A stretch of DNA of 64,000 nucleotides from Thiohalorhabdus sp. Cl-TMA (GCF_041821045.1 NZ_JBGUAW010000011.1:62001-126000); one strand, 5' to 3'. Counted from the stretch's first letter, positions 29,629 through 61,480 are shown. Notes: generated by a model not told the origin, from the sequence alone. Numbers and translations are program-made.

Positions 29629-29706
29629 GGACAACTATGCCCATAACCCCTCCCTGAGCAAACGAAAAATAAGCTAATGCGTTGCAGAACAGGAGCTTTT
29701 GTAATT

Positions 29707-29721
29707 TGGCCCGCTACTTGC
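29707..29721 (+). promoter_or_regulatory. Sigma-54-type -24/-12 promoter upstream of mxaF
   Basis: TGGCCCG-CTAC-TTGC (followed by T) matches the sigma-54 consensus TGGCACG-N4-TTGCW with one mismatch, and has the invariant GG and GC at the right spacing, preceded by T as preferred. It is on the coding strand of mxaF, about 237 bases before the ATG. No equally good -10/-35 pair was seen. Confidence 0.65.
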
Positions 29722-29957
29722 TTAGTCCAGTAACAGGTTTTCTACCTCCGACTGCACTCGGACAACGGATTCGGGACTCGATTCTCCTGAAGAGCGAGCG
29801 GGAGAAGCCATGCCTTATATGGCCCCAATTAGAAGGCCCTGAAGGAGTGTGGGATTCAGGACTTCAATGGAATCGCCGTTCCGTATGGAGAAGCAGCAGT
29901 GCCGAAGAGCCGGAGGCGGAAGACGTGCAAACAAAATCCATGCAAGGAGGAAATGTC

Positions 29958-31841
29958 ATGGGACGTCTGACACACCGTTCGGTGTACAAGGGCTCAATGG
30001 CCCTGCTAGCCGTCTCTCTTTCCGCCTACGCGGGCACGGCCACGGCCAATGAAAAGCTGCAGGAGCTCGCGAAAAGCGAAAAGAACTGGGTGATGCAGTG
30101 CAAGAGCTACGACTGCCAGCACTTCAGTGAATCCACCCAGATCAACGCCTCCAACGTGGAGAACCTGGAGCCGGCATGGTCCTTCTCCACGGGCGTCCTC
30201 TCGGGCCACGAAGGCGCTCCCCTGGTGGTTAACGGCATGATGTACATCCACTCGCCGTACCCCAACAAGGTCTTCGCCGTCGATCTGGACAATCCCAACA
30301 AGATCGTCTGGCAATACGAGCCCAAGCAGGATCCGGCGGCGCGCTCGGTGGCCTGCTGCGACGTGGTCAACCGGGGGCTGGCCTATTATCCCGGGGAAGG
30401 AGACACCCCGCCGCTGATCATCGAGAGCACCCTGGACGGGCACCTGCTGGCGCTGAACGCCAACAACGGGGAGATGTACTGGAAGCTGGAGGTCATGGAC
30501 CCGAGCGTGGGCCAGACCCTGACCCAGTCGCCCTACGTGGTGAAGGACAAGGTGATCATCGGCTCGTCCGGAGCGGAGCTGGGCGTGCGGGGCGTGGTGA
30601 CCGCCTACGATATTAAAACCGGCGAGCAGGATTGGCGCGCCTACGCCACCGGCCCTGACAAGGACCTGCTGCTCGCCGATGACTTCAACAGCGCGAACCC
30701 ACAATACGGTCAAGAGGGCCTCGGACTCAAGACCTGGGAAGGCAACCAGTGGAAAGTGGGCGGCGGCACCAACTGGGGCTGGTACGCCTACGATCCGGAA
30801 GAGGAGCTGGTCTACTACGGCGCCGGCAACGCTGCTCCCTGGAACGAGACCATGCGCCCCGGCGACAACAAGTGGACCAACACCATCTTCGCCCGGGATG
30901 TGGATTCGGGTAAGGCCGAGTTCGCCTACCAGAAGACGCCCCACGACGAGTGGGACTACGCCGGCGTCAACGTGATGATGCTCTCCGAGCAGAAGGTCGA
31001 CGGCGAAACCAAGAAGCTGCTCACCCACCCCGACCGGAACGGCATCCTCTACTCCCTCGACCGCACCAACGGCGACCTCGTCGCGGCCGACAAGATGGAC
31101 GACACGGTGAACTGGGTGGAGCACGTCAACCTGGACACCGGCACCCCCGTCCGGGATCCCGAGTACGGCACCCGCATGGGCCACAAGACCAAGGGCATCT
31201 GCCCGTCGGCCATGGGCTACCACAACCAGGGCGTGGACTCCTACGACCCCGACAAAGAGCTGTTCTTCATCGGCATGAACCACCTGTGCATGGACTGGGA
31301 GCCCTACATGCTTCCCTACCGCGCGGGGCAGTTCTTCGTGGGCGCCAACGTCTGGACCTATCCCGGACCCAAGGGCAACCGCGAGGAGAGCACCGGTTCC
31401 GGCCAGATCAAGGCCTACGACGTCAAAACCGGCGAATTCAAGTGGTCCAAGATGGAGCGCTTCGCCGTCTGGGGCGGCACCACCGCCACCGCCGGCAATC
31501 TGGTCTTCTACGGCACCCTCGACGGCTTCATCAAGGCCCGCGACTCCCGTACCGGTGAGCTGCTGTGGAAGTACAAGCTGCCCTCCGGCGTGATCGGCCA
31601 TCCCATCACCTACAAGCACGACGGCACCCAGTACGTGGGCATCAATTACGGTGTCGGCGGCTGGCCGGGTGTGGGTCTGGTCTTCGACCTGGAGGATCCC
31701 TCCGCCGGACTCGGCGCTGTGAACGCCTTCAAGAAGCTCCAGGAGCACACCCAGATGGGTGGCGGCTTCATGGCCTTCTCGCTGGAAGGGGATACCCCGT
31801 TCGACAACGTCGACGTGGGTGAGTACCAGGCCAGCAACTGA
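29958..31841 (+). CDS. mxaF: Methanol dehydrogenase large subunit, calcium type
   Basis: A 627-residue periplasmic PQQ enzyme that oxidises methanol to formaldehyde. The signal peptide covers about residues 1-31, ending [10 protein letters not shown]. The adjacent disulfide cysteines that cover PQQ are in [12 protein letters not shown]. The catalytic Asp is D333 in [14 protein letters not shown]; the residue two positions on is Ala335, whereas lanthanide-dependent XoxF has Asp there, so this is MxaF, the calcium form. The C-terminal half is near-identical to known MxaF ([37 protein letters not shown]). AAGGAGG precedes ATG 29958. It heads the mxa operon. Confidence 0.97.
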
Positions 31842-41862: not shown

Positions 41863-43086
41863 CTACTGGAAGTCCTTGGTATAGGTGATCTGGTAGGCGG
41901 TGGCGTTGTTCTCCCCGAACACGGCGTTCTTCATGCGCTGCTCGAAGCGGAAGGCCCGGAGCTTGAGGATTCCGCCCTGACCGAGGGGTACCCCCAGCTT
42001 CATCCCGTAGGTCGTGGACCGGAGCCTCGCCAGACGGTTGTCAGCGCTCACGTAGCGCGGCACGGACTCCCCCGTGGCGAGGTTCCGCACATAGAAATCC
42101 GCCGCGGTCTGCCGGTAGTAGCGCCCGAAGGGCTCCAGGAAGAAGCGCTCGGAGCCGAGCTGATAGCGATAGCGCAGATTGACGGTATGGGAGTCGATTC
42201 CCCAGCCGTCGGTGTAGTACCGGTAGTCGAGGGCGAGGGTATCCCGATCCGCGCGCAGCTCGTGGACCAGACTGGCGAAGAGCCCCTTGCGCCTGCGCTC
42301 GGTGGGCCGACTCTCGTAGATCCGGGTGAGCTCGATGTCATTCTCGTTGGCGACGCTCACCACCTTGTAGGGGTCGGTGTGGTAGCCCTCGGAGACCGTG
42401 TAGAACAGGTTGAGCTGCATGAGGGTCTTGGGGTTCACGGCGTGGGTGATGCCGATCACCCCGTCAAGGGTCTCGCGCCGGCCCTCCCCCGCGAAGTCTT
42501 CATCGGCGGTATCGCTGCCCGGTACGGGGGTGCGACCGTCCAGCTGCGCGATCTTGTCCGTGGAGCCGCCGAAGGCCAGGGAGAGGGTGGTCTGCTTGTT
42601 GAAGAAATCCTTCTCCGCGGTGATCCCCCCGCCCAGCGCCTCGTAGTCGCTCTCCACGGAGACGTAGGCATTGGGCCGGACCCGGAAGGTCCGCCAGAAA
42701 TCGTGCGTCCACGCCATGTCCACCGCCAGCCGGGTATCCTCGAAAGGCGCCAGCGCCTTCGCCTCCCCCGAGGTGGTGAAGCCGGCTCCGGAGGTCCCGG
42801 TTACCGTGGTCACGCTGGAGGTCTGGACGGCGCCGGTGTGCGTGGAGCCGGTCATGGTATCCAGCACCACCCCCAGCTTGATGGAGTCCCGATCGCTCAT
42901 GTCGCCGCGCACGTCGATCATGTACGACTCCACGTCGACGCGGTCCTCCTCGCTGTAGCTGAGGTAGGACGCATCCACCGACCAGTTGTTGCCGTAGACC
43001 TCGGCGGATTCCGCGTTCTGCCCGAGCAGGCTGGCGGTGGCCGCGGCGAGCAGCCCGCCGATGGATTTCGATCTAGTTGCAGCCAC
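41863..43086 (-). CDS. DUF3570 outer-membrane beta-barrel protein
   Basis: A protein of about 407 residues with a signal (SIGGLLAAATASLLGQNAESA), followed by alternating aromatic strands (VDASYLSYSEEDRVDVESYM, DTLALDYRYYTDGWGIDSH) and a final strand ending in Phe-Gln. DUF3570 proteins are predicted outer-membrane barrels and nearly always follow a DUF4266 gene, as here. The start is uncertain; GTG 43086 overlaps the end of the DUF4266 gene by 14 bases and begins the signal; GTG 43092 is an alternative. Confidence 0.85.
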   Translation of the reverse strand: MAATRSKSIGGLLAAATASLLGQNAESAEVYGNNWSVDASYLSYSEEDRVDVESYMIDVRGDMSDRDSIKLGVVLDTMTGSTHTGAVQTSSVTTVTGTSGAGFTTSGEAKALAPFEDTRLAVDMAWTHDFWRTFRVRPNAYVSVESDYEALGGGITAEKDFFNKQTTLSLAFGGSTDKIAQLDGRTPVPGSDTADEDFAGEGRRETLDGVIGITHAVNPKTLMQLNLFYTVSEGYHTDPYKVVSVANENDIELTRIYESRPTERRRKGLFASLVHELRADRDTLALDYRYYTDGWGIDSHTVNLRYRYQLGSERFFLEPFGRYYRQTAADFYVRNLATGESVPRYVSADNRLARLRSTTYGMKLGVPLGQGGILKLRAFRFEQRMKNAVFGENNATAYQITYTKDFQ

Positions 43087-43315
43087 AGCCACCCGCCCCC
43101 ACTCCGGAGCCGCCCGTGGACGCCTCCTTGCTGAAATAGGTGTGCTCATCCACATAGGCATCCACCGGGTCGCCCCCGAGGCGCATGGATTCCTCGGCCA
43201 GCGTGCCGCGCTCCCAGGCCTTGACCTTGCGGAAGTCCATCGGGCCGTTGTTGGCGCAGGCGCTCAGGAGCAGAGCCGCCAGTAGCGGCAGGACCGTGCG
43301 ACGCGCCCCCCTCAT
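43073..43315 (-). CDS. DUF4266 lipoprotein with C-terminal Cys-Gly-Cys tail
   Basis: An 80-residue lipoprotein: signal LLAALLLSAC (Cys20), then the family block KAWERGTLAEESMRLGGDPV, DEHTYFSKEAS and the glycine-rich end GGSGVGAGGCGCN. The last residues (Cys-Gly-Cys-Asn) are a striking conserved tail and could bind metal or be a redox disulfide; a thioredoxin-like gene sits directly upstream. It overlaps tlpA by ATGA and the DUF3570 gene at its end. Confidence 0.88.
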   Translation of the reverse strand: MRGARRTVLPLLAALLLSACANNGPMDFRKVKAWERGTLAEESMRLGGDPVDAYVDEHTYFSKEASTGGSGVGAGGCGCN

Positions 43316-43821
43316 TGGGCCGCCCGTACCTGGCGGGCGATCATGCGCTCGAGGCGCTCGCGCTCGCCCAGCCGGAAGCCGAGCTCGCGATGGACGATGC
43401 GACCGTCCGGTCCCACCAGGTAGGAGCTCGGCATGGCGGAGACGCCATACTTCTCGGCCAGGTCGCCTCCCGGGTTGAAGACCACCGGAAAGTCGACGGG
43501 CACCTCGCGCAGGAAGCGCTTCGCATCGGCGGTGGACTCGTCGAGGTTCACGGCGGCGATGACCAGGCCGTCGTCGGAATAGCGGTCGTGTAGCTCGTTC
43601 ATCCAGGGAAAGGACTGCCGGCACGGGCCGCACCAGGAGGCCCAGAAGTCCACGTAGACCACATGGCCGCGGAGCTCCGACAGCATGGCGGAGCCGTGGA
43701 AGTTCGGGCCCTGGATCCGGAAGTCGGGGGCGCGGTCGCCGGTGTCGGCGGCCAGGGCGGAGGTGACGGCGCCCGACAGCAGGGCGGCGAGTAGCAGCAA
43801 GCGGGATAAAAGGGTGTGCAT
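43312..43821 (-). CDS. TlpA-like thiol-disulfide oxidoreductase
   Basis: A 169-residue exported thioredoxin-fold protein: signal LLLLAALLSGAVTSALA, AlkyI-hydroperoxide-reductase/TlpA-type YVDFWASWCGPCRQSFPWM with the CGPC active site, and the cis-Pro region SAMPSSYLVGPDG. It likely reduces a periplasmic disulfide; the obvious local partner is the Cys-Gly-Cys tail of the DUF4266 protein, with which it overlaps. The start is ATG 43821 at the signal; a longer open frame upstream adds 15 residues. Confidence 0.92.
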   Translation of the reverse strand: MHTLLSRLLLLAALLSGAVTSALAADTGDRAPDFRIQGPNFHGSAMLSELRGHVVYVDFWASWCGPCRQSFPWMNELHDRYSDDGLVIAAVNLDESTADAKRFLREVPVDFPVVFNPGGDLAEKYGVSAMPSSYLVGPDGRIVHRELGFRLGERERLERMIARQVRAAQ

Positions 43822-43862
43822 CGGCTTCGGCTTCCCTGCGTCGGTTGGAAAGGTCCCGGCGA

Positions 43863-45380
43863 TCAAAACAGGGTCGGCTCCCCGGCCCGGGTTTCGTCGA
43901 TGGGCGCATCGCCGGAGGGATTCCGCTCCGGGTCGGCGGTCATGGCCTCCGGCCTCTGCGCCCCGAAGTAGCCGTACACCGTGGACGCCACGGCCATGGG
44001 CTCGGCCTCGTAGCTGCCGTCGGTGGGCATGGTGTACTGGTTGTTCTCGCCGGCCGTACCCACCCGCTCGGTGGCGCCCACCACCTTGCCGAGGGCCCCC
44101 GAGGGCCGCAGGGCGGCCCCGCCGAGGGTGTAGAGGTTCTGGTTGTTGGCGTGGTCCCAGCCCATGGAGTTGTTGAGGTTCACCAGCCGCCCGAAGTCGC
44201 CAAAGACGTTGATAACGATGTTGTCGGTGGGCCGGGACCCCGTGCTCGACAGCCGGATGTGGCGCATGGCCACGCGCAGGGTGTCCATCACGTCGTTCAT
44301 GCGGCCCGGGTACTTGTCCACCCCGTTGTTGTGGTCGTCCCAGCCGCCCAGGCCGTCCGAGCCGGCGGTGATGTAGACGGTGCTCGGGTTGGCGATGGCC
44401 AGGGTCACCGCCGCCCGCACGTTCTCCGCGAATCCGTTGTTCGGGTACTGGAGCTCGCCGGTGGTGTCGTCACCGTCGGGGTCGGCCGTCCCGACATTGG
44501 GAAGGGCTTCGTCGCGGGCGGTCTCGAGCCGGCCGATCAGGTCCTCCATGGTCCTGCGGTGCTCGAAGCCGTTGGCGGCGGCCTCGAAGCGCTCGCGGTA
44601 CCCGGCCTCCGCCATGACCGTGCCGCGCAGGCGCTCGAAGACCGCCTCGTTGGTGGCATTGGTCTGGCCCCGGCTGTAGGGATTGTCGAAATCCCGGTTC
44701 ATGGTGATCGGCCGCAGGGCCAGGGGCAGCTGCTTGTCCGGGTCGATGGCGTAGGACGTCGACTCGCCCTCGAAGGACACGAAGGGCAGCGGCATGCCCG
44801 GAAGCCCCCCGTCGAAGCTGCTCACCGCGGTGCCGTCGGCGAGACTCGCGGTGGCCACCCGGTCGCGGTGCGTGTGGAGCAGGCCGGCCAGCCGGGTACC
44901 CACTCCCGGGCTGTTCTCCACGGCGAGCGCCCCCTTGTTGGCGATGAAGATGCTCTCGCGGTGGGAGCGGGTGGCGTTCTTGCGCTTGACCAGGGTGCGG
45001 TACACGGAGAGATCGCCGCCGGCGATCATGTCCTCCATGTGGGCGCCGCCGGCGTCCTGCCAGAAGCCGTGCGGGGTGATCTGGCCGCCGTCGGTGGTGA
45101 AGTCGAGGATGCCGTCGCCGAAGGCCTCCGTATAGGAGTTCTGCGAATTGGCGTCGATGTCGGCGATGTTGGTCAGGTTGCCCGCGAGCTCCGAGGGACC
45201 GCCGTACAGGAAGATGTTGATCACCTGCGGCATGACGGTGGGCGGGGTATAGCCCACCGCGCCGTAGTCGGGGCTGAAGGCGCGGGCGCGGCGGGCCAGC
45301 AGCGAGAGCGGGAATCCGACCGGGATGGCGCGCGCCAGGCCCAGGCCGCCGCCCATCTTGAGGAAGTTTCTGCGATTCAT
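43863..45380 (-). CDS. DUF1501 protein exported by the Tat system
   Basis: A 505-residue protein with a twin-arginine signal (MNRRNFLKMGGGLGLARA). The family (DUF1501, sulfatase/alkaline-phosphatase-like fold) has the local blocks VINIFLYGGPSELAGNLTNI, YITAGSDGLGGWDDHNNG and INVFGDFGRLVNLNNSMGWD, where the Asp and His residues may hold metal ions. DUF1501 proteins usually pair with DUF1800 or similar genes, as here. Export by Tat suggests folding or cofactor loading in the cytoplasm. It lies ten bases after the partner gene. Confidence 0.88.
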   Translation of the reverse strand: MNRRNFLKMGGGLGLARAIPVGFPLSLLARRARAFSPDYGAVGYTPPTVMPQVINIFLYGGPSELAGNLTNIADIDANSQNSYTEAFGDGILDFTTDGGQITPHGFWQDAGGAHMEDMIAGGDLSVYRTLVKRKNATRSHRESIFIANKGALAVENSPGVGTRLAGLLHTHRDRVATASLADGTAVSSFDGGLPGMPLPFVSFEGESTSYAIDPDKQLPLALRPITMNRDFDNPYSRGQTNATNEAVFERLRGTVMAEAGYRERFEAAANGFEHRRTMEDLIGRLETARDEALPNVGTADPDGDDTTGELQYPNNGFAENVRAAVTLAIANPSTVYITAGSDGLGGWDDHNNGVDKYPGRMNDVMDTLRVAMRHIRLSSTGSRPTDNIVINVFGDFGRLVNLNNSMGWDHANNQNLYTLGGAALRPSGALGKVVGATERVGTAGENNQYTMPTDGSYEAEPMAVASTVYGYFGAQRPEAMTADPERNPSGDAPIDETRAGEPTLF

Positions 45381-45390
45381 GGCGCGGTAC

Positions 45391-47142
45391 CTACTGAACG
45401 GCCCGGTAGTAATAGAGCTCGGGCAGGCGCGAGATGTAGTCGAAGATAGCGCGGGCGAAATCATCGGCGCGGTTGTCGTCCACCCATTCCAGGCTGGCGT
45501 CGTCCCCCTCCCGGACCCAGTAGCGCTGCCGCGCCAGGTCCAGGAGCTCGGCCTTCTCGGCGTCGGTGGCGAACCGCCGCGCACCGGTCAGGAAGACGTA
45601 GTCGACAAACTCGCGCAGATCCAAGGAAGCCAGCGGTGAATAGAGGTCCTCCGTATCCCGCCGGTAGAACAGGCCGTGCTCCCCGGGATATTCCGAGTGA
45701 TTGCCGTCGTAGGCGCGGTGCTGGAGAAGCACCCGCTCGCGCATGGCCTTGTGGTAGTTGGCGAAGCTGAGCGCGTCCATGGGAACGTCCGGCTGCCGGC
45801 CGATCTTGTACTCCATGGTCGCCCAGCCCATGTTGTCCAGGTACATCTGGCTATAGGACAGGCGGGTCATGCGCCGGAATATGTCGTCGTCAACCTCGCC
45901 GCGCTCCGGATAGGCGGACCACTTCAGGCGGGCAAGGGTGCCGAACAGGTTCTCGTCCACCGCCTGCACCCGCCTGGTGCCGAGCAGGTACTCGCGGGAG
46001 AACAGGATCGCCTTGAAGATATCCTCGAAGGTCTCGGGACCGCTCTTGACGATGGACTCCACCATGGCCAGGCGGTCCTCGGCGCTGCGCCCCGCCATCA
46101 GATAGTTGACGATCACCTCCACCACCCGCGGCATGAAGCGCGGATCGCTGACGATGACGTTGTAGAGGTCGTCACAGTTGGTGATGTAGTACTGGTCGAG
46201 GATCACCTGCGGCCGGCTGTTGGCGAAGGGCGTCTGCACCAGCTCGTAGCCCATGTCCTCGTCGGTGAGGTAGAAGTCCTTGCAGGCGATGCCGCCCTTG
46301 CGGGAGTCCTCCTCGGTATCGAACAGCCCGAGGTAGAGCTCGAAGGCCTCCAGGGCATGGTTCTCGGGGGAGCGCGAAACGCGCCAGCGGCTCAGGGTGG
46401 GCAGGTGGCCGCGCACGATCTCCCGGACCGACTGGCCGTCGGTGATCTTGCGCTCCAGGGAGGCCATGACGCGCTGGGCGTCGTTGATGTTGGTGCTCTC
46501 CATCTCCAGGGCCGGGGAGAACATGATGGTGTTCGCCAGGAAGTGCGCCATCCACACCGCGAACATGTCCCGGGAGAGCGGATACTCGACGATGCGGGCG
46601 AGAGGCTCCTGCTTGGGCAGCCGCTCGTCGTCGAATCGGTACTTGGCCTGCTCGGGGTCGCGGTTGCCCTGCGCGTCGAGGCCGAAGATTTCCGTCTCCG
46701 CGGCTTCGCGGCGCTCCGCCGAGAGCGGCTCCGACAGGGCCCGGCGGGTCTGCTCGAGGAAATCCTCATGGGCGACGGACGGCTTATCCAGGCCCCGGGA
46801 CAGGTCGAAGAAGGAGTCGACGGGAACGCCCCGCCAGAGGGTGCCGAGCAGCTTGTTCGCCACCTGGTACCGCTCCTCCGGAGACAGGCCGTCGAACGCC
46901 TTCTGGGTGAGCGGGGCGGCGAAGCCCTTGGGCCTCAGGTCGGAATCAGAGGGTCCGTCGCTCGGCACGTTCCCCTGGCCGCAGGCCACGAGCCCGAGGC
47001 CCATGAGCGCCGCGGCAAAATGCCTGCATGCGGATCGGAAGGTGGGACGGCTGCGGTAGGCTCGTTCCGGACGTTTCGGCAGACCGGACGCAATACGGGC
47101 GGGTGCCCCGGAGCGGACCGGTGGCGGCGCTTCCCATTCCAT
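45391..47142 (-). CDS. Large helical lipoprotein paired with the DUF1501 protein
   Basis: A 583-residue protein with an unusually long basic n-region before the lipoprotein signal (AALMGLGLVAC, Cys54). The start at 47142 is supported by AAGGAG seven bases upstream. The body is helical and acidic, with the C-terminal REFVDYVFLTGARRFATDAE and a Tyr-rich end (LPELYYYRAVQ) that resembles DUF1800/DUF1592-type modules which accompany DUF1501. No heme motif is present. It is the first gene of the leftward cluster and is divergent from apbE. Confidence 0.7.
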   Translation of the reverse strand: MEWEAPPPVRSGAPARIASGLPKRPERAYRSRPTFRSACRHFAAALMGLGLVACGQGNVPSDGPSDSDLRPKGFAAPLTQKAFDGLSPEERYQVANKLLGTLWRGVPVDSFFDLSRGLDKPSVAHEDFLEQTRRALSEPLSAERREAAETEIFGLDAQGNRDPEQAKYRFDDERLPKQEPLARIVEYPLSRDMFAVWMAHFLANTIMFSPALEMESTNINDAQRVMASLERKITDGQSVREIVRGHLPTLSRWRVSRSPENHALEAFELYLGLFDTEEDSRKGGIACKDFYLTDEDMGYELVQTPFANSRPQVILDQYYITNCDDLYNVIVSDPRFMPRVVEVIVNYLMAGRSAEDRLAMVESIVKSGPETFEDIFKAILFSREYLLGTRRVQAVDENLFGTLARLKWSAYPERGEVDDDIFRRMTRLSYSQMYLDNMGWATMEYKIGRQPDVPMDALSFANYHKAMRERVLLQHRAYDGNHSEYPGEHGLFYRRDTEDLYSPLASLDLREFVDYVFLTGARRFATDAEKAELLDLARQRYWVREGDDASLEWVDDNRADDFARAIFDYISRLPELYYYRAVQ

Positions 47143-47468
47143 CTTTTTGCTCCTTGAGTGCCCGTTCCGCGCGGCTACATGGTGCGGTAACGGTCCCCCC
47201 TTTACTCGGAGGAGCGCTGAATTTTCCCAGCCCGCGGGGCGCCGCGGCGCTGGCTCCGTTTCCCCTCCGGAGCCATGCGCGCCGTGCCGCTACGACGCGG
47301 GCAGACTTGCAGGTATTTTTGTAGGCGAAACGCTGTCGAAGATCAATGACAGCGCGATGACAAATAGGCCCCCGGAACCGCAAAGATTCTTTTAGACAAT
47401 TGAGCCGGAACGTTTTTTCGGTCTGCAAAGGGGCGACAATTTTTTTCGAACCCCCTGGGGGACAAGAG
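47143..47468. promoter_or_regulatory. Divergent regulatory region with inverted repeat CGCTGTC-N10-GACAGCG
   Basis: 326 bases separate the leftward DUF1501 cluster from the rightward apbE. The right half is AT-richer. CGCTGTC at 47331-47337 and GACAGCG at 47348-47354 form a perfect 7-bp inverted repeat with a 10-base spacer, a likely operator for a dimeric regulator acting on one or both sides. A -35/-10 pair could not be assigned with confidence. Confidence 0.5.
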
Positions 47469-48362
47469 ATGAGCGTTGAAGAGCCGGTCCTGGAGCGCCT
47501 CGGGACACTCTGGAAGGCGCGCTTCATGGCCATGGCCAGCCCTTGCGAGGTGCTGGCGGAAACCGGAGACAGGGAATTGGCCGAGGAGCTGGGCGGTATC
47601 GCCGCCGCCGAGGCCTGGCGGATCGAGCGCGCCTTCAGCCGCTACCGCGACGACAACCTGATCGCCCGCATCAACACCAGCCAAGGCGCGTCCGTGGAGG
47701 TGGACACCGAAACCGCCGATCTCCTCGATTTCGCGGACGAGTGCCACCGGATCAGCGACGGCCTCTTCGACATCACCTCCGGGGTACTGCGCCGCATCTG
47801 GCGGTTCGGTCCCGACGCCGAGCCGCCAGGCGCCGAGCAGATCGCCGCGCTCATGCCGCTGATCGGCTGGCACCGCGTCACGTGGCAGCGGCCTCGGCTG
47901 GTGGTGCCGGCCGGCATGGAGATCGATCTCGGGGGCATCGGCAAGGAGTACGCCGTGGACCGGACCTTTACGCTCCTCGAGGAGCGGACCGAGGTCCCTT
48001 TCCTGGTGAACTTCGGCGGCGATCTGCGCGCCAACCGGGTCCGCAGCGACGAGAGTCCGTGGACCACCGGCATCGAGCACCCGCAAGAGACCCGCACGGC
48101 CGTGCAGACCCTTGCGCTGCACCGGGGGGGCTTGGCCACCAGCGGCGACGTGCGCCGCTCCTTCACCCACCACGGCGTCGTGTACGGCCACATCCTCCAT
48201 CCGCACACGGGCTGGCCCGTGCCCGACGGCCCCCGCTCGGTGACCGTCGCCGCCCCCACCTGTACCCAGGCCGGCGTCCTGTCGACGCTCGCCATGCTGC
48301 ACGGTGCCGACGCGGAGGCCTTCCTCGACGACCAGGAGCTGGCCTACTGGAGCGTCCGGTAA
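47469..48362 (+). CDS. apbE: FAD:protein FMN transferase (ApbE family)
   Basis: A 297-residue enzyme that attaches FMN from FAD to Thr/Ser in exported proteins. The blocks are MAMASPCEVLAE at the start, DGLFDITSGVLRRIWRFG, GMEIDLGGIGKEYAVDR, FLVNFGGDLRANR, and the metal-binding end TVAAPTCTQAGVLSTLAMLHG. No signal peptide is obvious, so it might act in the cytoplasm or have an atypical export signal. GGGGGA precedes ATG 47469. A flavinylation target with the D-G-x-[ST]-[AG]-[ST] type motif was not found in the adjacent genes. Confidence 0.9.
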   Translation: MSVEEPVLERLGTLWKARFMAMASPCEVLAETGDRELAEELGGIAAAEAWRIERAFSRYRDDNLIARINTSQGASVEVDTETADLLDFADECHRISDGLFDITSGVLRRIWRFGPDAEPPGAEQIAALMPLIGWHRVTWQRPRLVVPAGMEIDLGGIGKEYAVDRTFTLLEERTEVPFLVNFGGDLRANRVRSDESPWTTGIEHPQETRTAVQTLALHRGGLATSGDVRRSFTHHGVVYGHILHPHTGWPVPDGPRSVTVAAPTCTQAGVLSTLAMLHGADAEAFLDDQELAYWSVR

Positions 48363-52183: not shown

Positions 52184-53704
52184 CTAGAACAGGCCCAGCG
52201 CCTTGCTGGAATAGCTCACCAGCAGGTTCTTGGTCTGCTGATAGTGGTCGAGCATCATCTGGTGGTTCTCCCGGCCGATGCCCGACTGCTTATACCCACC
52301 GAAGGCGGCGTGGGCCGGATACTGGTGGTAGCAGTTGGTCCACACGCGGCCAGCCTGGATGCCCCGTCCCATACGGTAGGCGGTGTTCATGTCGCGGGTC
52401 CAGACACCGGCGCCCAGCCCGTACAGGGTATCGTTGGAGATCTCCAGGGCGTCGTCCATGTCCTTGAAGCTGGTCACGGAGACCACCGGGCCGAAGATCT
52501 CCTCCTGGAAGATCCGCATCCGGTTGTTGCCCTCGAAGATGGTCGGCCGCACGTAGAAGCCGCCGGCCAGATCGCCCTCGCCCTCGAAGGGCTCGCCGCC
52601 GGCCAGCACTTTGGCGCCTTCCTCCTTGCCGATGGCCAGGTAGGACAGGATCTTCTCCTGCTGGTCGCGGGAGGCCTGGGCCCCCACCTGGGTATCCGTG
52701 TCCAGGGGGTTGCCCTGCTTCAGCGCCTGCGTACGGGCCACGGCGCCTTCCATGAACTGGTCGTAGAAGCGCTCCTGCACCAGTCCCCGGGACGGGCAGG
52801 TACAGACCTCGCCCTGGTTGAGGGCGAACATGGCAAAGCCTTCCAGGGACTTGTCGGCGAAATCGTCCTGCTCGGAGAAGCAGTCGGAGAAGAAGACGTT
52901 GGGCGACTTGCCGCCCAGCTCCAGGGTGACCGGGATCAGGTTCTCCGAGGCCGACTGCATGATCAGGCGCCCGGTGGTGGTCTCGCCGGTGAAGGCCAGC
53001 TTGGCCACGCGCGGGCTGGTGGCCAGGGGCTTGCCCGCCTCGGCGCCGAAGCCGTTCACCACGTTGACCACGCCGGCCGGCAGCAGGTCCTGGAGCATCT
53101 CCATGAGGAGGAGAATGGAGGCGGGCGTCTGCTCGGCCGGCTTCAGCACCACGCAGTTACCGGCGGCCAGCGCCGGAGCCAGCTTCCAGGTGGCCATCAG
53201 GATCGGGAAGTTCCAGGGGATGATCTGCCCCACTACCCCGAGCGGCTCCTTGAAGTGGTAGGCCACGGTGTCGTTGTCCAGCTCGCTGATGCCGCCTTCC
53301 TGGGCGCGGATGGCGCCGGCGAAATAGCGATAGTGGTCGATGGCCAGGGGAATGTCGGCGGCCAGGCACTCGCGCACGGGCTTGCCGTTATCCCAGGTCT
53401 CCGCCACCGCCAGCTGCTCCAGATTCGCTTCCATGCGGTCGGCGATGCGGTTTAGCAGGTTGGCCCGCTCGGCGGGGGAGGTGATGCTCCAGGACGCCTT
53501 GGCGGCGTGGGCGGCATCCAGGGCCCGCTCGACGTCATCGGCGGTGGAGCGCGGAATCTCGCAGAAGGTCTGCCCGGTTACCGGGGTGGGGTTGCCGAAA
53601 TAGTTGCCCTTCGCCGGCGCCACCCACTCGCCGCCGATGAAGTTCTCGTAGCGGCTCTTGTAGGAAACGACGGCATCGGCCGATCCAGGTGCCGAGTAGA
53701 GCAT
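52184..53704 (-). CDS. NAD(P)-dependent aldehyde dehydrogenase (AldB/ExaC type)
   Basis: A 506-residue aldehyde dehydrogenase: [20 protein letters not shown] for nucleotide binding, [15 protein letters not shown], general base Glu in [13 protein letters not shown], catalytic Cys in [11 protein letters not shown], and [11 protein letters not shown]. Start [21 protein letters not shown] is typical of the acetaldehyde-dehydrogenase group used in ethanol oxidation. It sits behind a sigma-54-type promoter and is divergent from an activator of the acetoin/ethanol type, so it likely oxidises acetaldehyde or another short aldehyde. Confidence 0.93.
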
Positions 53705-53757
53705 GGCTTCTCCTCCTTGGTATTTCAGCTATGATGGGGACTTCCGGAACAACCGGG

Positions 53758-53772
53758 GCAAGAAGCGTTCCA
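53758..53772 (-). promoter_or_regulatory. Sigma-54-type promoter for the aldehyde dehydrogenase gene
   Basis: On the minus strand the sequence is TGGAACG-CTTC-TTGC, matching TGGCACG-N4-TTGC with one mismatch and with the essential GG and GC. The predicted start near 53747 leaves a leader of about 43 nt. A short inverted repeat GTTCC-N9-GGAAC (53767-53785) overlaps the -24 side. Confidence 0.7.
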
Positions 53773-53840
53773 AAGCTTTCGGAACCCGGGAACAACGATC
53801 CAATCTCCTGATTTTTCGGGCCCTGAGAAAGCACCCTGCA

Positions 53841-53858
53841 TTCGGTTTGCCGACCGAA
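53841..53858. promoter_or_regulatory. Inverted repeat TTCGGT-N6-ACCGAA, candidate activator site
   Basis: A perfect 6-bp inverted repeat with a six-base spacer lies about 70-90 bp upstream of the -24 element of the dehydrogenase promoter and about 80 bases before the activator gene. This is a standard place for the upstream activating site of an enhancer-binding protein. Confidence 0.55.
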
Positions 53859-53936
53859 GGGCCGCCATGCCGCTTCCAGGTGTTGCAAATTGCGATAGCG
53901 GCGTTGCGGCACGCGACAGCCGGAAGGAGAGAGGCC

Positions 53937-55775
53937 ATGGGAACGCTGAACGGTACCTACGGTTCGGGTCGGAAACCCTTTCGGAAACGGGACGAGACCG
54001 CCGGCCTCGAACCGGTTATCGAGCGTTCCTGGCGGCGCTGCGCGGCGGACGGGCTGGATATGGCGGGCCGGGCCGACGACGCGGTGTACGGCGGCACCGA
54101 GCTGAAGCAGCGGCGGGAGCGGCAGGAGCACCTGGTGGCTTACGCCCTTCCGGAGCTGGAGAACATCCGCCAGCAGATCGCCCACACCAACAGCACCGTG
54201 ATCCTCACCGACGCCGAAGGCGTTCTGCTCCAGCGCCTGGGTGACGCGGAGTTCCACCGCCGGGCCGAGACGGTGGCCCTCCAGCCCGGCGCCTGCTGGA
54301 ACGAGAGCGCGCGCGGCACCAACGCCATCGGTACCGCCATCACCGAGCGCCTTCCGGTGAACGTGCACCGCGGCGAGCACTACCTGGAATGCAACGCCTT
54401 CCTCACCTGCGCCGCCTCACCCATTCTGGATCCCGCCGGCTCGCTCATCGGGATTCTGGACATCTCCGGGGACCAGGATGCCCGGCAGATGCACAGCCTC
54501 GGTCTGGTGCAGATGTCCACCACCATGATCGAGAACCGTCTCCTGGAGGAGCACTTCGACGAGGCCCTTTACCTCTATTTTCACCCGCGTCCGGAATTCC
54601 TCGGCACCCTGGGCCAGGGCATCGCCGCCTTCGCCGGTGACGGCCGACTCCTGGCCACCAATACCTGCGCCCGGCGGCTCCTCGACCTGACGAGCACCAT
54701 CCACGGATGTACGGGCTTCGAGGACCTGTTCGGCGTGCCCCTCGAGTGGATATTCCGGTGCCCGGGCGAAACGGGGCCGAACCTGGAGACCCCTTCCGGA
54801 ATCCGCCTCCACACCCGGACCCGTCTCCGCCAGCCCCATGCCCGACCGACTCCCATTCCCTCGCCCCTTCCCACCACCGGCCGCATCGAGCACGGCGATC
54901 CGACCGTGGCCACCGCGGCGGAGCGCGCCCATCGCGTACTGACCCGGGATATCCCCGTTCTGATCGAGGGAGAGACCGGGACCGGCAAGGAGCATCTGGC
55001 CCGCATGCTGCACGACTACGGACCCCGCGCCGACGGCGCCTTCGTGGCCATCAACTGTGCCGCCCTGCCGGAATCGCTCATCGAATCGGAGCTGTTCGGC
55101 TACGTGCCGGGGGCGTTCACGGGGGCCAAGCGCGAGGGGCAGACCGGCAAGCTGGTGGAGGCGGACGGCGGGACGCTCTTCCTGGACGAGATCGGCGACA
55201 TGCCCCTTCCCCTGCAGAGCCGTCTGCTGCGCGTTCTGCAGGACAAGCAGGTGGTTCCCGTGGGGGGCAACCAGCCCCGGCCCGTGTCGTTCTCCCTGGT
55301 CAGCGCCACCCACCGCGATCTGCGTGCACTGGTGGCGGCGGGCGAGTTCCGCTCCGACCTTTACTACCGGCTGAACGGTCTCCAGGTGGAGATGCCGCCC
55401 CTTCGCAGGCGCCGCGACCTCTCCCGGCTCATCCACGCGCTACTGGCGGAGGAGGATCCCGAGGCCCGCATCTGCCCGGAAGCCCTGGAGCTGATGCTCG
55501 GCCATCCGTGGCCGGGCAACTGCCGGCAGCTCTCCTTCGTGCTGCGTACCGCGCTGGCCCTGCGCGACGACGCCGAGCCGCTGGAACCGCGGCATCTGCC
55601 CGGTGATTTCCACAAGGATCTGACCGGCAGGGACGAGGAGTGCGGCAGCAGCCTGCAGGCCGTAACCGATCAGGTCATCCGGGAAGCGGTGGAGGCAAAC
55701 GGCGGCAATGTCAGCGCCGCCGCGCGCGCCCTGGGCATCAACCGCAGCACCATCTACCGGCGGCTGCAGCGCTGA
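53937..55775 (+). CDS. Sigma-54-dependent activator (AcoR-like)
   Basis: A 612-residue bacterial enhancer-binding protein. The N-terminus (about residues 25-210) matches the AcoR-type sensor (ERSWRRCAADGLDM, and the GAF region HTNSTVILTDAEGVLLQRLG, GACWNESARGTNAIGTAITE). The central AAA+ domain has Walker A GETGTGKE (about 345), the sigma-54 contact loop GAFTGAKREG, and DEIGDMPLPLQSRLLRVLQD. A Fis-type helix-turn-helix ends it (VSAARALGI-type: AARALGINRSTIYRRLQR). AAGGAGA precedes ATG 53937. It likely activates the divergent aldehyde dehydrogenase operon, and perhaps other sigma-54 promoters. Confidence 0.93.
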   Translation: MGTLNGTYGSGRKPFRKRDETAGLEPVIERSWRRCAADGLDMAGRADDAVYGGTELKQRRERQEHLVAYALPELENIRQQIAHTNSTVILTDAEGVLLQRLGDAEFHRRAETVALQPGACWNESARGTNAIGTAITERLPVNVHRGEHYLECNAFLTCAASPILDPAGSLIGILDISGDQDARQMHSLGLVQMSTTMIENRLLEEHFDEALYLYFHPRPEFLGTLGQGIAAFAGDGRLLATNTCARRLLDLTSTIHGCTGFEDLFGVPLEWIFRCPGETGPNLETPSGIRLHTRTRLRQPHARPTPIPSPLPTTGRIEHGDPTVATAAERAHRVLTRDIPVLIEGETGTGKEHLARMLHDYGPRADGAFVAINCAALPESLIESELFGYVPGAFTGAKREGQTGKLVEADGGTLFLDEIGDMPLPLQSRLLRVLQDKQVVPVGGNQPRPVSFSLVSATHRDLRALVAAGEFRSDLYYRLNGLQVEMPPLRRRRDLSRLIHALLAEEDPEARICPEALELMLGHPWPGNCRQLSFVLRTALALRDDAEPLEPRHLPGDFHKDLTGRDEECGSSLQAVTDQVIREAVEANGGNVSAAARALGINRSTIYRRLQR

Positions 55776-59614: not shown

Positions 59615-61228
59615 CTAGAAGCCGGGGACGCTTTTCCCCTCGGGGGTGCTCAGACGGTATCCGGCCTTCAGGACCACGGTCCCGCCGGCGGGAATGGTCC
59701 GCTCCCAGGCATGGATTCCCCGACGGGAATCCACATCCGATCGGTCAGGCTCCTCGGGGAACCAGGGCTCCACGGTGATCTCCTCGTCGCGCGGTACGGG
59801 AACGCGAAAGCGCACGGAGCCCTCCAGGGGCCGCTGGTGGCGGTTGGTGAGCTCGATGCGGTAATGGCGGGTACGGACGCTCCGCTTGCTGATGAGCCCG
59901 TCCTCCCCCGCCAGGTCGGTGACGGGGCGGAAGGCCACCTCGAAGCGCGGATCGATTCCGAAGGCCAGATGGCGCGCATCGCCCGGTGCCCACGCCGACC
60001 AGCGCCCCCGGCCCACGAAGGACCCGTCGCGGTAGCGGCTCACCCGCCCAGGGGGCAGGGCACCCTGGCCGTTCCAGGTCACGCGGGCGGTCATCCAGGC
60101 CCGTTCGCTCCGCTGGGGAACCACGCGGACGGCCATCTCGGAGGCGAGCTGGCGACGGCCCAGGACCACGGTCCGGGGCTGGTTGGCGCCCGGCACGGTG
60201 ACCGCCCCCGAAACCCGGTAGGTGGGGGTGAACGCCCCGTGCACGGTCCGGGACCGCGCCTCCTTCCCACCCGAAATCGGGGGGGCCGCCTCCCTGGCCC
60301 GCGCGCCGTCCGCTTTCCCGGCCAGGGGGCGGGGCTGCCCGAAGTCCACCCACCAGATGGGAAGCTCCGGGTAGGAGCCCGAAACCGGGGCGACCGTGGC
60401 CAGGGCGAGGCGGATGCCGGACCAGTCCTTGCCGGTGCGCTGCCGGACCCGCGCCTTGCGCACCAGCTGCACGGCACCGCCGTTCGTATCGAGATGGGCC
60501 TCGTATTCGGGCCGCCATTCCGCCCCGCGCACCCGGTAGCGCAGGGAGAGCTCCGCCCGGGTGGCCGCATCCGCCTCCAATCCGATACGAATACGGATAC
60601 GGGCCTTCTCCCCCTGCCCCAGCTGCTCCAGGGAGTCGCGCACCGCCTCGATCTCCGCCTGCAGGCGCTCCTGCTCGCGCCGGGCCTCCCGCATCACTTT
60701 CCGCGCCTGCCGGGCGCCTTCGCCGATGCGCCGCCACAGCTCCGGCCATCGCTCGGCGGCCCCGCCGCCGGTCAGGGCGGACCCGGCGCCTTCCCGCTCA
60801 GGCAGCTCCGCCAGTCCCTCCACGAAGGTCAGCTGGGTCCGGGCCGTCTCCATCCGGTCGGTAACGGCGACCCGGTCGGCCTGCAGGCGCTCGAGCTTGG
60901 CCCGCAGCTGCCGCTCGCGCTCCCGGGGCGGCCCGCTCACCGGCTGGCGGTCCACCTCCACGGTGCCCACCCGGACCGCCGCCTGAGCCCCGGAAACCTC
61001 TGCCCGTACGGAGCTTCGAACAAGCTGCGCGGGCAGATCGCCGACCACCAGCTCCCGGGCGCCGGCCTGGAGGTCCACTTCCGCGGAGCGGTGGATCCGG
61101 GCCTGGTCATTGGGGTACACGGTTACTGCGCGGATTGCGGTATCGAGGGGGGTGACCGCCCGGACGGATCCGCCGGAGAGCGCGGGAATTCCCCAGGCGA
61201 TGGCGAGCATCACGAGACGGAGGCGCAT
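59615..61228 (-). CDS. DUF4139 (MuiA-like) secreted protein
   Basis: A protein of about 537 residues with a signal peptide (LVMLAIAWGIPALSGGSVRA). An N-terminal DUF4140-like part (AIRAVTVYPNDQARIHRSAE) is followed by a coiled coil at about residues 85-215, then the DUF4139 domain (ELSLRYRVRGAEWRPEYEAH, ELTNRHQRPLEGSVRFRVPV). The family was named for a mucoidy inhibitor; its molecular role is not known. GGAAGG is six bases before ATG 61228; an in-frame ATG at 61234 is an alternative two codons earlier. It converges on the alcohol dehydrogenase remnant. Confidence 0.82.
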   Translation of the reverse strand: MRLRLVMLAIAWGIPALSGGSVRAVTPLDTAIRAVTVYPNDQARIHRSAEVDLQAGARELVVGDLPAQLVRSSVRAEVSGAQAAVRVGTVEVDRQPVSGPPRERERQLRAKLERLQADRVAVTDRMETARTQLTFVEGLAELPEREGAGSALTGGGAAERWPELWRRIGEGARQARKVMREARREQERLQAEIEAVRDSLEQLGQGEKARIRIRIGLEADAATRAELSLRYRVRGAEWRPEYEAHLDTNGGAVQLVRKARVRQRTGKDWSGIRLALATVAPVSGSYPELPIWWVDFGQPRPLAGKADGARAREAAPPISGGKEARSRTVHGAFTPTYRVSGAVTVPGANQPRTVVLGRRQLASEMAVRVVPQRSERAWMTARVTWNGQGALPPGRVSRYRDGSFVGRGRWSAWAPGDARHLAFGIDPRFEVAFRPVTDLAGEDGLISKRSVRTRHYRIELTNRHQRPLEGSVRFRVPVPRDEEITVEPWFPEEPDRSDVDSRRGIHAWERTIPAGGTVVLKAGYRLSTPEGKSVPGF

Positions 61229-61480
61229 ACGCATCCTTCCTTTCGGGAAACGGGACCCTGACTGCCCGCGACCATAGCATGAATCCCATGGGCGCCCGTC
61301 GGTCCCTGCGTCCCCAATGCGCGTATCCGCCCCTGCCGTGCCGCCGCCGGGAACGGGCCAGACGGCCCGTCCCCGTTCTGTTGTCTTCTCACCCGCCCGG
61401 CGGCGATAATGGGCAGGCTGAAGCGCGTTGCCCATGCCGGAGCGACGCGATCGTCGCCCCGTTCACCACAGGAGGTTCAT

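What the first reader, a model, noticed from the sequence alone, without database searches (positions are those of the whole stretch)
41863..48362. Envelope cluster: DUF1501, large lipoprotein, TlpA, DUF4266, DUF3570, with divergent ApbE
Six exported or flavin-related genes surround one operator-like repeat. TlpA overlaps the gene of a tiny lipoprotein ending Cys-Gly-Cys-Asn, whose gene overlaps an outer-membrane barrel. ApbE attaches flavin to exported proteins, yet no standard target motif is visible here. The set could be an outer-membrane redox or metal-maturation device in which TlpA keeps the Cys-Gly-Cys tail reduced and ApbE supplies flavin to an unknown partner. The DUF1501 pair may be a second half of the same system. 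I regard this as the best candidate for an undescribed system in the window.
Basis: partly seen in the sequence, partly recalled or inferred. Interest (0 to 1): 0.78.

Follow-up and report, generated by a model that had tools for sequence, protein, structure and literature searches.

The report
Outer-membrane flavin-barrel cluster with a new lipoprotein
Six neighbouring genes appear to build an outer-membrane protein barrel with a covalently attached vitamin-B2 cofactor, kept next to a previously unnamed lipoprotein/hydrolase-fold pair; four of the six genes form a published module, but their tie to the other two, and the likely loading of the flavin before export, seem to be new.

Summary
The genes are all there, in the stated order. 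TlpA-DUF4266-DUF3570-ApbE is a published flavinylation module (Méheust 2021), and DUF3570 is ApbE's known target. The "large lipoprotein" has no Pfam family; profile comparison makes it a remote DUF1800 relative. It sits beside a divergent DUF1501 (77 of 80 loci; the other three end at contig edges). In a 274-genome survey every lipoprotein genome also had DUF3570 (11/11 against 59/263, p=1.6e-7), nearly always within 8 kb, in several gene orders; linked DUF3570s nearly form one clade. Ordinary DUF1501s are not linked. But each half also lives alone: two modules often joined, not one obligate machine. The modelled DUF3570 is a 16-strand outer-membrane barrel with its flavin site and most conserved residues in the long-loop (surface) half. 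ApbE here, and in most related clusters, has no signal peptide, so flavin is probably attached before export; the genome keeps a separate lipoprotein ApbE, presumably for RNF. Electron flow TlpA to DUF4266 to flavin, and the job of the lipoprotein/DUF1501 pair, are inference. New variant of a known kind.

The parts
41863..43092 (-). DUF3570 gene, GTG start; predicted 16-strand outer-membrane barrel with Sec signal; predicted ApbE target
   Evidence: Pfam 5e-84; AlphaFold pLDDT 88, pTM 0.83; Foldseek prob 1.0 to porins
42841..42852 (-). Flavinylation motif T81-G-S-T84 (T84 predicted FMN attachment), top of strand 3
   Evidence: aligns with [ST]G[AS][ST] in 61 of 63 homologues, the two others being SGPS and IGAS; G82 and S/T84 invariant
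43073..43315 (-). DUF4266 small lipoprotein, C-terminal GGCGCN; overlaps both neighbours
   Evidence: Pfam 1.7e-19; tail CGCN in 44 of 44 homologues near the lipoprotein
43312..43821 (-). TlpA/ResA-like periplasmic thioredoxin, WCGPC at 43621-43635
43863..45380 (-). DUF1501, divergent subfamily of the alkaline-phosphatase-like fold, Tat signal (RRNFLK)
   Evidence: Pfam 2.1e-9; RR invariant in 72 of 72, GWDDH and GWDH motifs kept
45391..47142 (-). 583-aa lipoprotein, no Pfam family, remote DUF1800 homologue; invariant Cys54 (lipobox), Cys287, Cys323
47143..47468 (.). Divergent promoter region between lipoprotein gene and apbE; inverted repeats not above chance
47469..48362 (+). apbE without signal peptide (AMASPCE subfamily): predicted cytoplasmic flavin transferase
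   Evidence: Pfam 5e-66; no signal in 39 of 44 scored ApbEs of such loci

Best explanation
A two-module envelope redox system. Module 1 (known kind): DUF3570 is an outer-membrane beta-barrel carrying FMN on T84, attached by the neighbouring ApbE. Because this ApbE has no signal peptide and the site lies on the presumed surface side of the barrel, flavin is probably attached to the unfolded precursor in the cytoplasm, before Sec export and BAM insertion. TlpA (reduced by the genome's DsbD) passes electrons to the Cys-Gly-Cys tail of the DUF4266 lipoprotein, which reduces the barrel's flavin; the flavin hands electrons outward. Module 2 (newly linked): a DUF1800-like lipoprotein and a Tat-exported DUF1501 protein of the alkaline-phosphatase fold form an obligate pair that in this lineage works with the barrel, perhaps at the outer membrane as the substrate-handling end. 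Shown here by computation: gene content, motif, barrel, missing signal peptide, linkage. Inferred: cytoplasmic flavinylation, electron path and direction, DsbD as donor, function of module 2.
For: ApbE flavinylates DUF3570 in E. coli at [ST]GA[ST] sites, and ApbE/DUF3570/thioredoxin/DUF4266 clusters are known. Window motif in register. Barrel model and porin matches; 44 of 51 conserved residues and the motif in the long-loop half. No signal peptide in linked ApbEs, separate lipoprotein ApbE and RNF elsewhere, DsbD present. Lipoprotein-DUF1501 adjacency 77/80 and DUF3570 or DUF4266 in 47/80 loci; genome co-occurrence 11/11 against 59/263; 19 recorded gene orders including contig-truncated ones, three relative orientations, median gap 1.0 kb; linked DUF3570s cluster on the tree, 2 changes against 17.7; ordinary DUF1501s not linked; PSCyt lipoprotein + DUF1501 in the same place in two other genomes.
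Against: Lipoprotein-DUF1501 stands alone in Aquificota, Desulfobacterota and some Granulosicoccaceae, 17 of 27 such genomes lacking DUF3570, so it cannot need the barrel to function there. Linked DUF3570s were collected through the lipoprotein, which inflates tree clustering. Barrel orientation rests on the general rule for outer-membrane barrels; no coordinates were available to place the flavin. The window's site also departs at Ala83 to Ser and Pro85 to His. No direct evidence for electron flow. Whether SecYEG tolerates a flavinylated chain is unknown to me.
Confidence: 0.5

Rival explanations
1. Two independent modules, often neighbours through shared ancestry or transfer as one island, without working together. 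DUF1501/lipoprotein is a hydrolase pair with its own job.
For: Each module occurs alone. Both congeners in the survey lack DUF3570, DUF4266 and the lipoprotein, so the set looks accessory in this genus.
Against: Linkage survives in many gene orders and three orientations at a median of 1 kb across deep lineages including a Nitrospirota genome; ordinary DUF1501s are not attracted.
Confidence: 0.3
2. Metal or cofactor maturation: the CGC tail binds a metal (copper or iron), TlpA keeps it reduced, and the flavin barrel reduces or imports metal; the DUF1501 pair is a metal-dependent hydrolase supplied by it.
For: Published DUF3570 clusters sometimes hold VIT1 iron transporters; one unlinked cluster here (L062) stands beside a gene that looks like an FTR1-type iron permease (read from the sequence, not scanned); the CGCN tail is invariant in 44 of 44 copies.
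Against: No transporter or metal-binding partner was seen to recur in the lipoprotein-linked clusters read out in full.
Confidence: 0.15
3. This apbE serves a distant flavinylated complex (RNF or FMN_bind proteins), and its place here is incidental.
For: The genome holds three FMN_bind proteins elsewhere.
Against: A second ApbE with a lipoprotein signal exists; this one has no signal peptide; ApbE stands by DUF3570 in most clusters.
Confidence: 0.05

Closest known systems
DsbD/thioredoxin-DUF3570-DUF4266-ApbE flavinylation system (Meheust et al. 2021, PMC8238504)
   Same: Same four families; DUF3570 flavinylated by ApbE; CXC tail of DUF4266; 316 of their clusters also lack DsbD nearby
   Different: ApbE without signal peptide, motif TGST with only one clear site, DsbD elsewhere, and a linked DUF1800-like lipoprotein/DUF1501 pair not described there (DUF1501 is not mentioned in that text)
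DUF1800-DUF1501 gene pair
   Same: DUF1501 partner over Pfam cut-off; lipoprotein is a remote DUF1800 homologue by profile comparison
   Different: No Pfam DUF1800 hit; ordinary DUF1501s are not near DUF3570; invariant Cys287/Cys323 (not compared with DUF1800 members)
Planctomycete-specific cytochromes (PSCyt/PSD) with their neighbour families (function unknown, PMC5615132)
   Same: In G010 and G233 a PSCyt diheme lipoprotein + DUF1501 takes the place of this pair upstream of TlpA-DUF4266-DUF3570
   Different: The window lipoprotein has no CxxCH heme motif
Outer-membrane porins (Occ/FadL/PelB class, by fold)
   Same: Barrel fold, Foldseek probability 1.0
   Different: TM-scores only 0.3-0.5, identity about 10%; none is flavinylated to my knowledge

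Membership tests
DUF3570/DUF4266/thioredoxin/ApbE flavinylation system | ApbE encoded in the cluster | tested here: met
DUF3570/DUF4266/thioredoxin/ApbE flavinylation system | DUF3570 with [ST]GA[ST] site | tested here: met
   met as the variant TGST in register, not as the exact motif; TGST, TGSS or SGST also in 7 other homologues; attachment residue retained
DUF3570/DUF4266/thioredoxin/ApbE flavinylation system | Second flavinylation motif | tested here: inconclusive
   conserved Ser-Gly at 101-102 in loop 3, but no canonical second motif in the window
DUF3570/DUF4266/thioredoxin/ApbE flavinylation system | DUF4266 with CXC tail and thioredoxin-like protein | tested here: met
DUF3570/DUF4266/thioredoxin/ApbE flavinylation system | Exported ApbE (a filter of the 2021 survey, not a stated definition) | tested here: not met
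   no signal peptide
DUF3570/DUF4266/thioredoxin/ApbE flavinylation system | DsbD in the cluster (285 of the published clusters; 316 others lack it) | tested here: not met
   the only DsbD found is on another contig
DUF3570/DUF4266/thioredoxin/ApbE flavinylation system | Covalent FMN on DUF3570 | not testable with these tools
   needs protein gel or mass spectrometry
DUF1800 (PF08811) | Pfam model hit over cut-off | tested here: not met
   no hit for the window protein, nor for any of the 11 members of A1
DUF1800 (PF08811) | Profile-profile similarity and DUF1501 partner | tested here: met
   hhalign Prob 95, E 3.4e-8, shuffled/reversed/unrelated controls at most 0.2; DUF1501 adjacent 77/80
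DUF1501 (PF07394) | Pfam model hit over cut-off | tested here: met
   37.5 bits against 27

The most novel reading that the evidence does not exclude
An outer-membrane flavin conduit whose cofactor is welded to the precursor in the cytoplasm and then carried through Sec and BAM to the cell surface, where it exchanges electrons with an exported DUF1800-like/DUF1501 pair. This would be a heme-free route across the outer membrane and would give a function to the widespread, unexplained DUF1501 pairs.
Probability: 0.2. Interest if true: 0.82.

Novelty: new variant of a known kind. Interest (0 to 1): 0.56.

Why it matters
Electron transfer across the outer membrane is known mainly through heme porin-cytochrome conduits. 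A flavinylated outer-membrane barrel with its site on the surface side would be a heme-free alternative and makes a clear test possible. Cytoplasmic flavinylation of an exported barrel would be a new order of events for ApbE. The steady link to DUF1800-like/DUF1501 and, in two genomes, PSCyt/DUF1501 pairs gives the first functional lead known to me for families of unknown function that are abundant in Planctomycetes and Verrucomicrobia.

Tried and rejected
Lipoprotein as a wholly new fold: rejected after profile comparison with DUF1800; the first two hhalign runs used wrong reading frames of the DUF1800 loci and gave Prob 20-25, corrected. PDB sequence searches for lipoprotein, DUF1501 and DUF3570 gave nothing useful; Foldseek of the lipoprotein gave no match better than E 0.59, only a weak phycobilisome-linker likeness, fitting the weak DUF4214 hits of two members. 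Operator repeat: not above chance. Alternative redox partners beside lone lipoprotein-DUF1501 pairs: none seen to recur. Plasmid carriage: no match. PHROGs: no match for lipoprotein or DUF1501. Literature: only one held paper names DUF3570 or DUF4266; none joins TlpA and DUF1501. The PSD4 search was meant to test the lipoprotein's kinship and instead pointed to the G010 case.

Full report
OBSERVATION. The window holds, on the minus strand, a 583-aa lipoprotein (45391-47142), DUF1501 (43863-45380), TlpA (43312-43821), DUF4266 (43073-43315) and DUF3570 (41863-43092), with apbE divergent (47469-48362). The overlaps are real: TlpA/DUF4266 share ATGA, and the DUF3570 GTG start lies inside the codons for the Gly-Gly-Cys-Gly-Cys-Asn tail; L046 has the same 20-bp overlap. 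The repeat between the lipoprotein gene and apbE is not clearly above chance. The lipoprotein's annotated start gives about 30 residues more before the lipobox than in relatives, so its true start is unsure.

WHAT IS KNOWN. Méheust et al. 2021 (PMC8238504, read) found DUF3570 to be an ApbE substrate, flavinylated in E. coli at two [ST]GA[ST] sites in the Chlorobium protein, and described clusters of ApbE, DUF3570, a thioredoxin-like protein and DUF4266 with a CXC tail: 285 flavinylation clusters with DsbD, most of them of this make-up, and 316 of the four-gene kind without DsbD. So the core of this finding is published. That survey filtered for exported components. No other held paper names DUF3570 or DUF4266.

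THE MISSING MOTIF. The window DUF3570 reads DTMTGSTHTG. In an alignment of 63 homologues this lies exactly on D..[ST]GA[ST]P.G; Gly82 and the Ser/Thr at 84 are invariant, and eight rows, the window included, have Ser for Ala at 83. A second canonical site is not evident in the window.

THE BARREL. AlphaFold on 63 sequences gives pLDDT 88 and pTM 0.83, with 16 long strands by my count. Foldseek finds porins with probability 1.0, though TM-scores are only 0.3-0.5. Loops on one side are 2-6 residues; on the other side four are 22-28 residues. By the usual rule (both termini periplasmic, long loops outside) the long-loop side faces the surface. The motif ends strand 3 on that side, and 44 of 51 conserved positions (two of the others are in the signal peptide) lie in that half. 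I infer that the flavin sits at the outer end of the barrel. Orientation is a rule, not a measurement.

APBE WITHOUT A SIGNAL. Reading upstream to the previous stop codon, the window ApbE and most ApbEs linked to DUF3570 here have only a short stretch before the domain and no hydrophobic segment: 39 of 44 scored; in the window the hydrophobic stretch lies upstream of the ATG. By contrast L207, L214 and the copies in L064/L066 begin with a hydrophobic signal-like stretch, so the reading can tell the difference. The window's genome has another ApbE with a lipobox (LTAC) and an RNF locus with a typical FMN_bind subunit. Cytosolic ApbEs are known, for instance for a soluble fumarate reductase (review PMC12052999), but I know of none that serves an outer-membrane barrel. 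The published E. coli experiment used a signal-truncated DUF2271 construct and a similar strategy for DUF3570, which was recovered from the insoluble pellet, so modification of unfolded DUF3570 in the cytoplasm is feasible.

THE LIPOPROTEIN. None of the 11 aligned members has a convincing Pfam match. A 91-sequence profile matches DUF1800 with hhalign Prob 95, E 3.4e-8 (one comparison) over 329 columns; shuffled, reversed and unrelated profiles give Prob at most 0.2. Three cysteines are invariant in 79 of 79: the lipobox Cys54, Cys287 and Cys323. The partner DUF1501 keeps the Tat arginines in 72 of 72 and the WD.H and WDH motifs that I take to bind metal. A model of the lipoprotein is helical (pTM 0.72) and matches no solved structure.

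LINKAGE. In 274 gammaproteobacterial genomes DUF3570 occurs in 70 and the lipoprotein in 11, all 11 with DUF3570 (Fisher p 1.6e-7); 8 of the 10 besides the window's own have both on one contig within about 8 kb, and in the other two the genes lie on separate contigs of fragmented assemblies. Among 80 loci from species genomes, DUF1501 adjoins the lipoprotein in 77, and DUF3570 or DUF4266 is nearby in 47; gaps have a median of 1.0 kb and a maximum of 5.3 kb, with 36 convergent, 6 divergent and 4 co-directional arrangements. The DUF3570s linked to the lipoprotein need only 2 label changes on the tree against 17.7 in shuffles; sampling through the lipoprotein inflates this. In 69 DUF3570 genomes, DUF1501 genes of other kinds are not near DUF3570, save two that come with a PSCyt/PSD diheme lipoprotein in the same slot (G010, G233). 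Against obligate partnership: 17 of 27 genomes with no DUF3570 beside the pair have none anywhere, in Aquificota, Desulfobacterota and part of the Granulosicoccaceae, though many of these are metagenome assemblies of unstated completeness.

MECHANISM. Inferred order: DsbD (elsewhere in the genome) reduces TlpA; TlpA reduces the CGC tail of DUF4266; the tail reduces the barrel flavin; electrons leave at the surface. How a periplasmic lipoprotein tail would reach a flavin at the outer end of the barrel is an open weakness of this order: it needs a path through the barrel lumen or a surface-exposed DUF4266. The lipoprotein/DUF1501 pair, both exported, would work at the outer end or hold a substrate. 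Direction and substrate are unknown. Rivals are listed separately; the strongest is that the two modules are neighbours without a shared job.

NOVELTY. The four-gene core is known. New here, to my knowledge: the DUF1800-like lipoprotein family and its link; the surface-side placing of the flavin site on an outer-membrane barrel; and the signal-less ApbEs of these clusters. Overall a new variant of a known kind.

Noticed in passing
L178:3281-8877 (G010) and L216:1738-7539 (G233): PSCyt/PSD diheme lipoprotein + DUF1501 directly upstream of TlpA-DUF4266-DUF3570, in the slot that the DUF1800-like lipoprotein + DUF1501 fills in the window; ApbE follows DUF3570 in L216, and in L178 lies elsewhere in the fetched stretch.
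   Followed up: partly
L200-L214, e.g. L202:1923-8314: A recurring gammaproteobacterial cluster: a lipoprotein with CxxCH motifs (hydrazine-synthase-alpha middle domain in the one scanned), an SH3/barrel protein, a second small barrel, TlpA, DUF4266, a divergent DUF3570 and TPR proteins; ApbE there can carry a signal peptide.
   Followed up: partly
L097:4902-11904: Two DUF3570 modules, one on each side of a single lipoprotein-DUF1501 pair.
   Followed up: no
L062:2923-5454: What looks like an FTR1-type iron permease gene stands beside an unlinked DUF3570-ApbE cluster (read from the sequence, not scanned), in line with the published iron link.
   Followed up: no
window 29682-31838 and 52187-55772: PQQ alcohol dehydrogenase on one side and ExaC acetaldehyde dehydrogenase with a sigma-54 activator on the other: an alcohol-oxidation region surrounds the cluster. 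No such genes were noticed in the relatives' loci.
   Followed up: partly
L238:683-3167: RNF-like locus of the same genome (RnfD-, RnfG- and RnfE-like proteins read from the sequence; the RnfG-like one has a QMTGATITSRAV site), presumably served by the lipoprotein ApbE on contig C1.
   Followed up: partly
window 59618-61435: MuiA-family protein (TIGR02231) on the minus strand.
   Followed up: no
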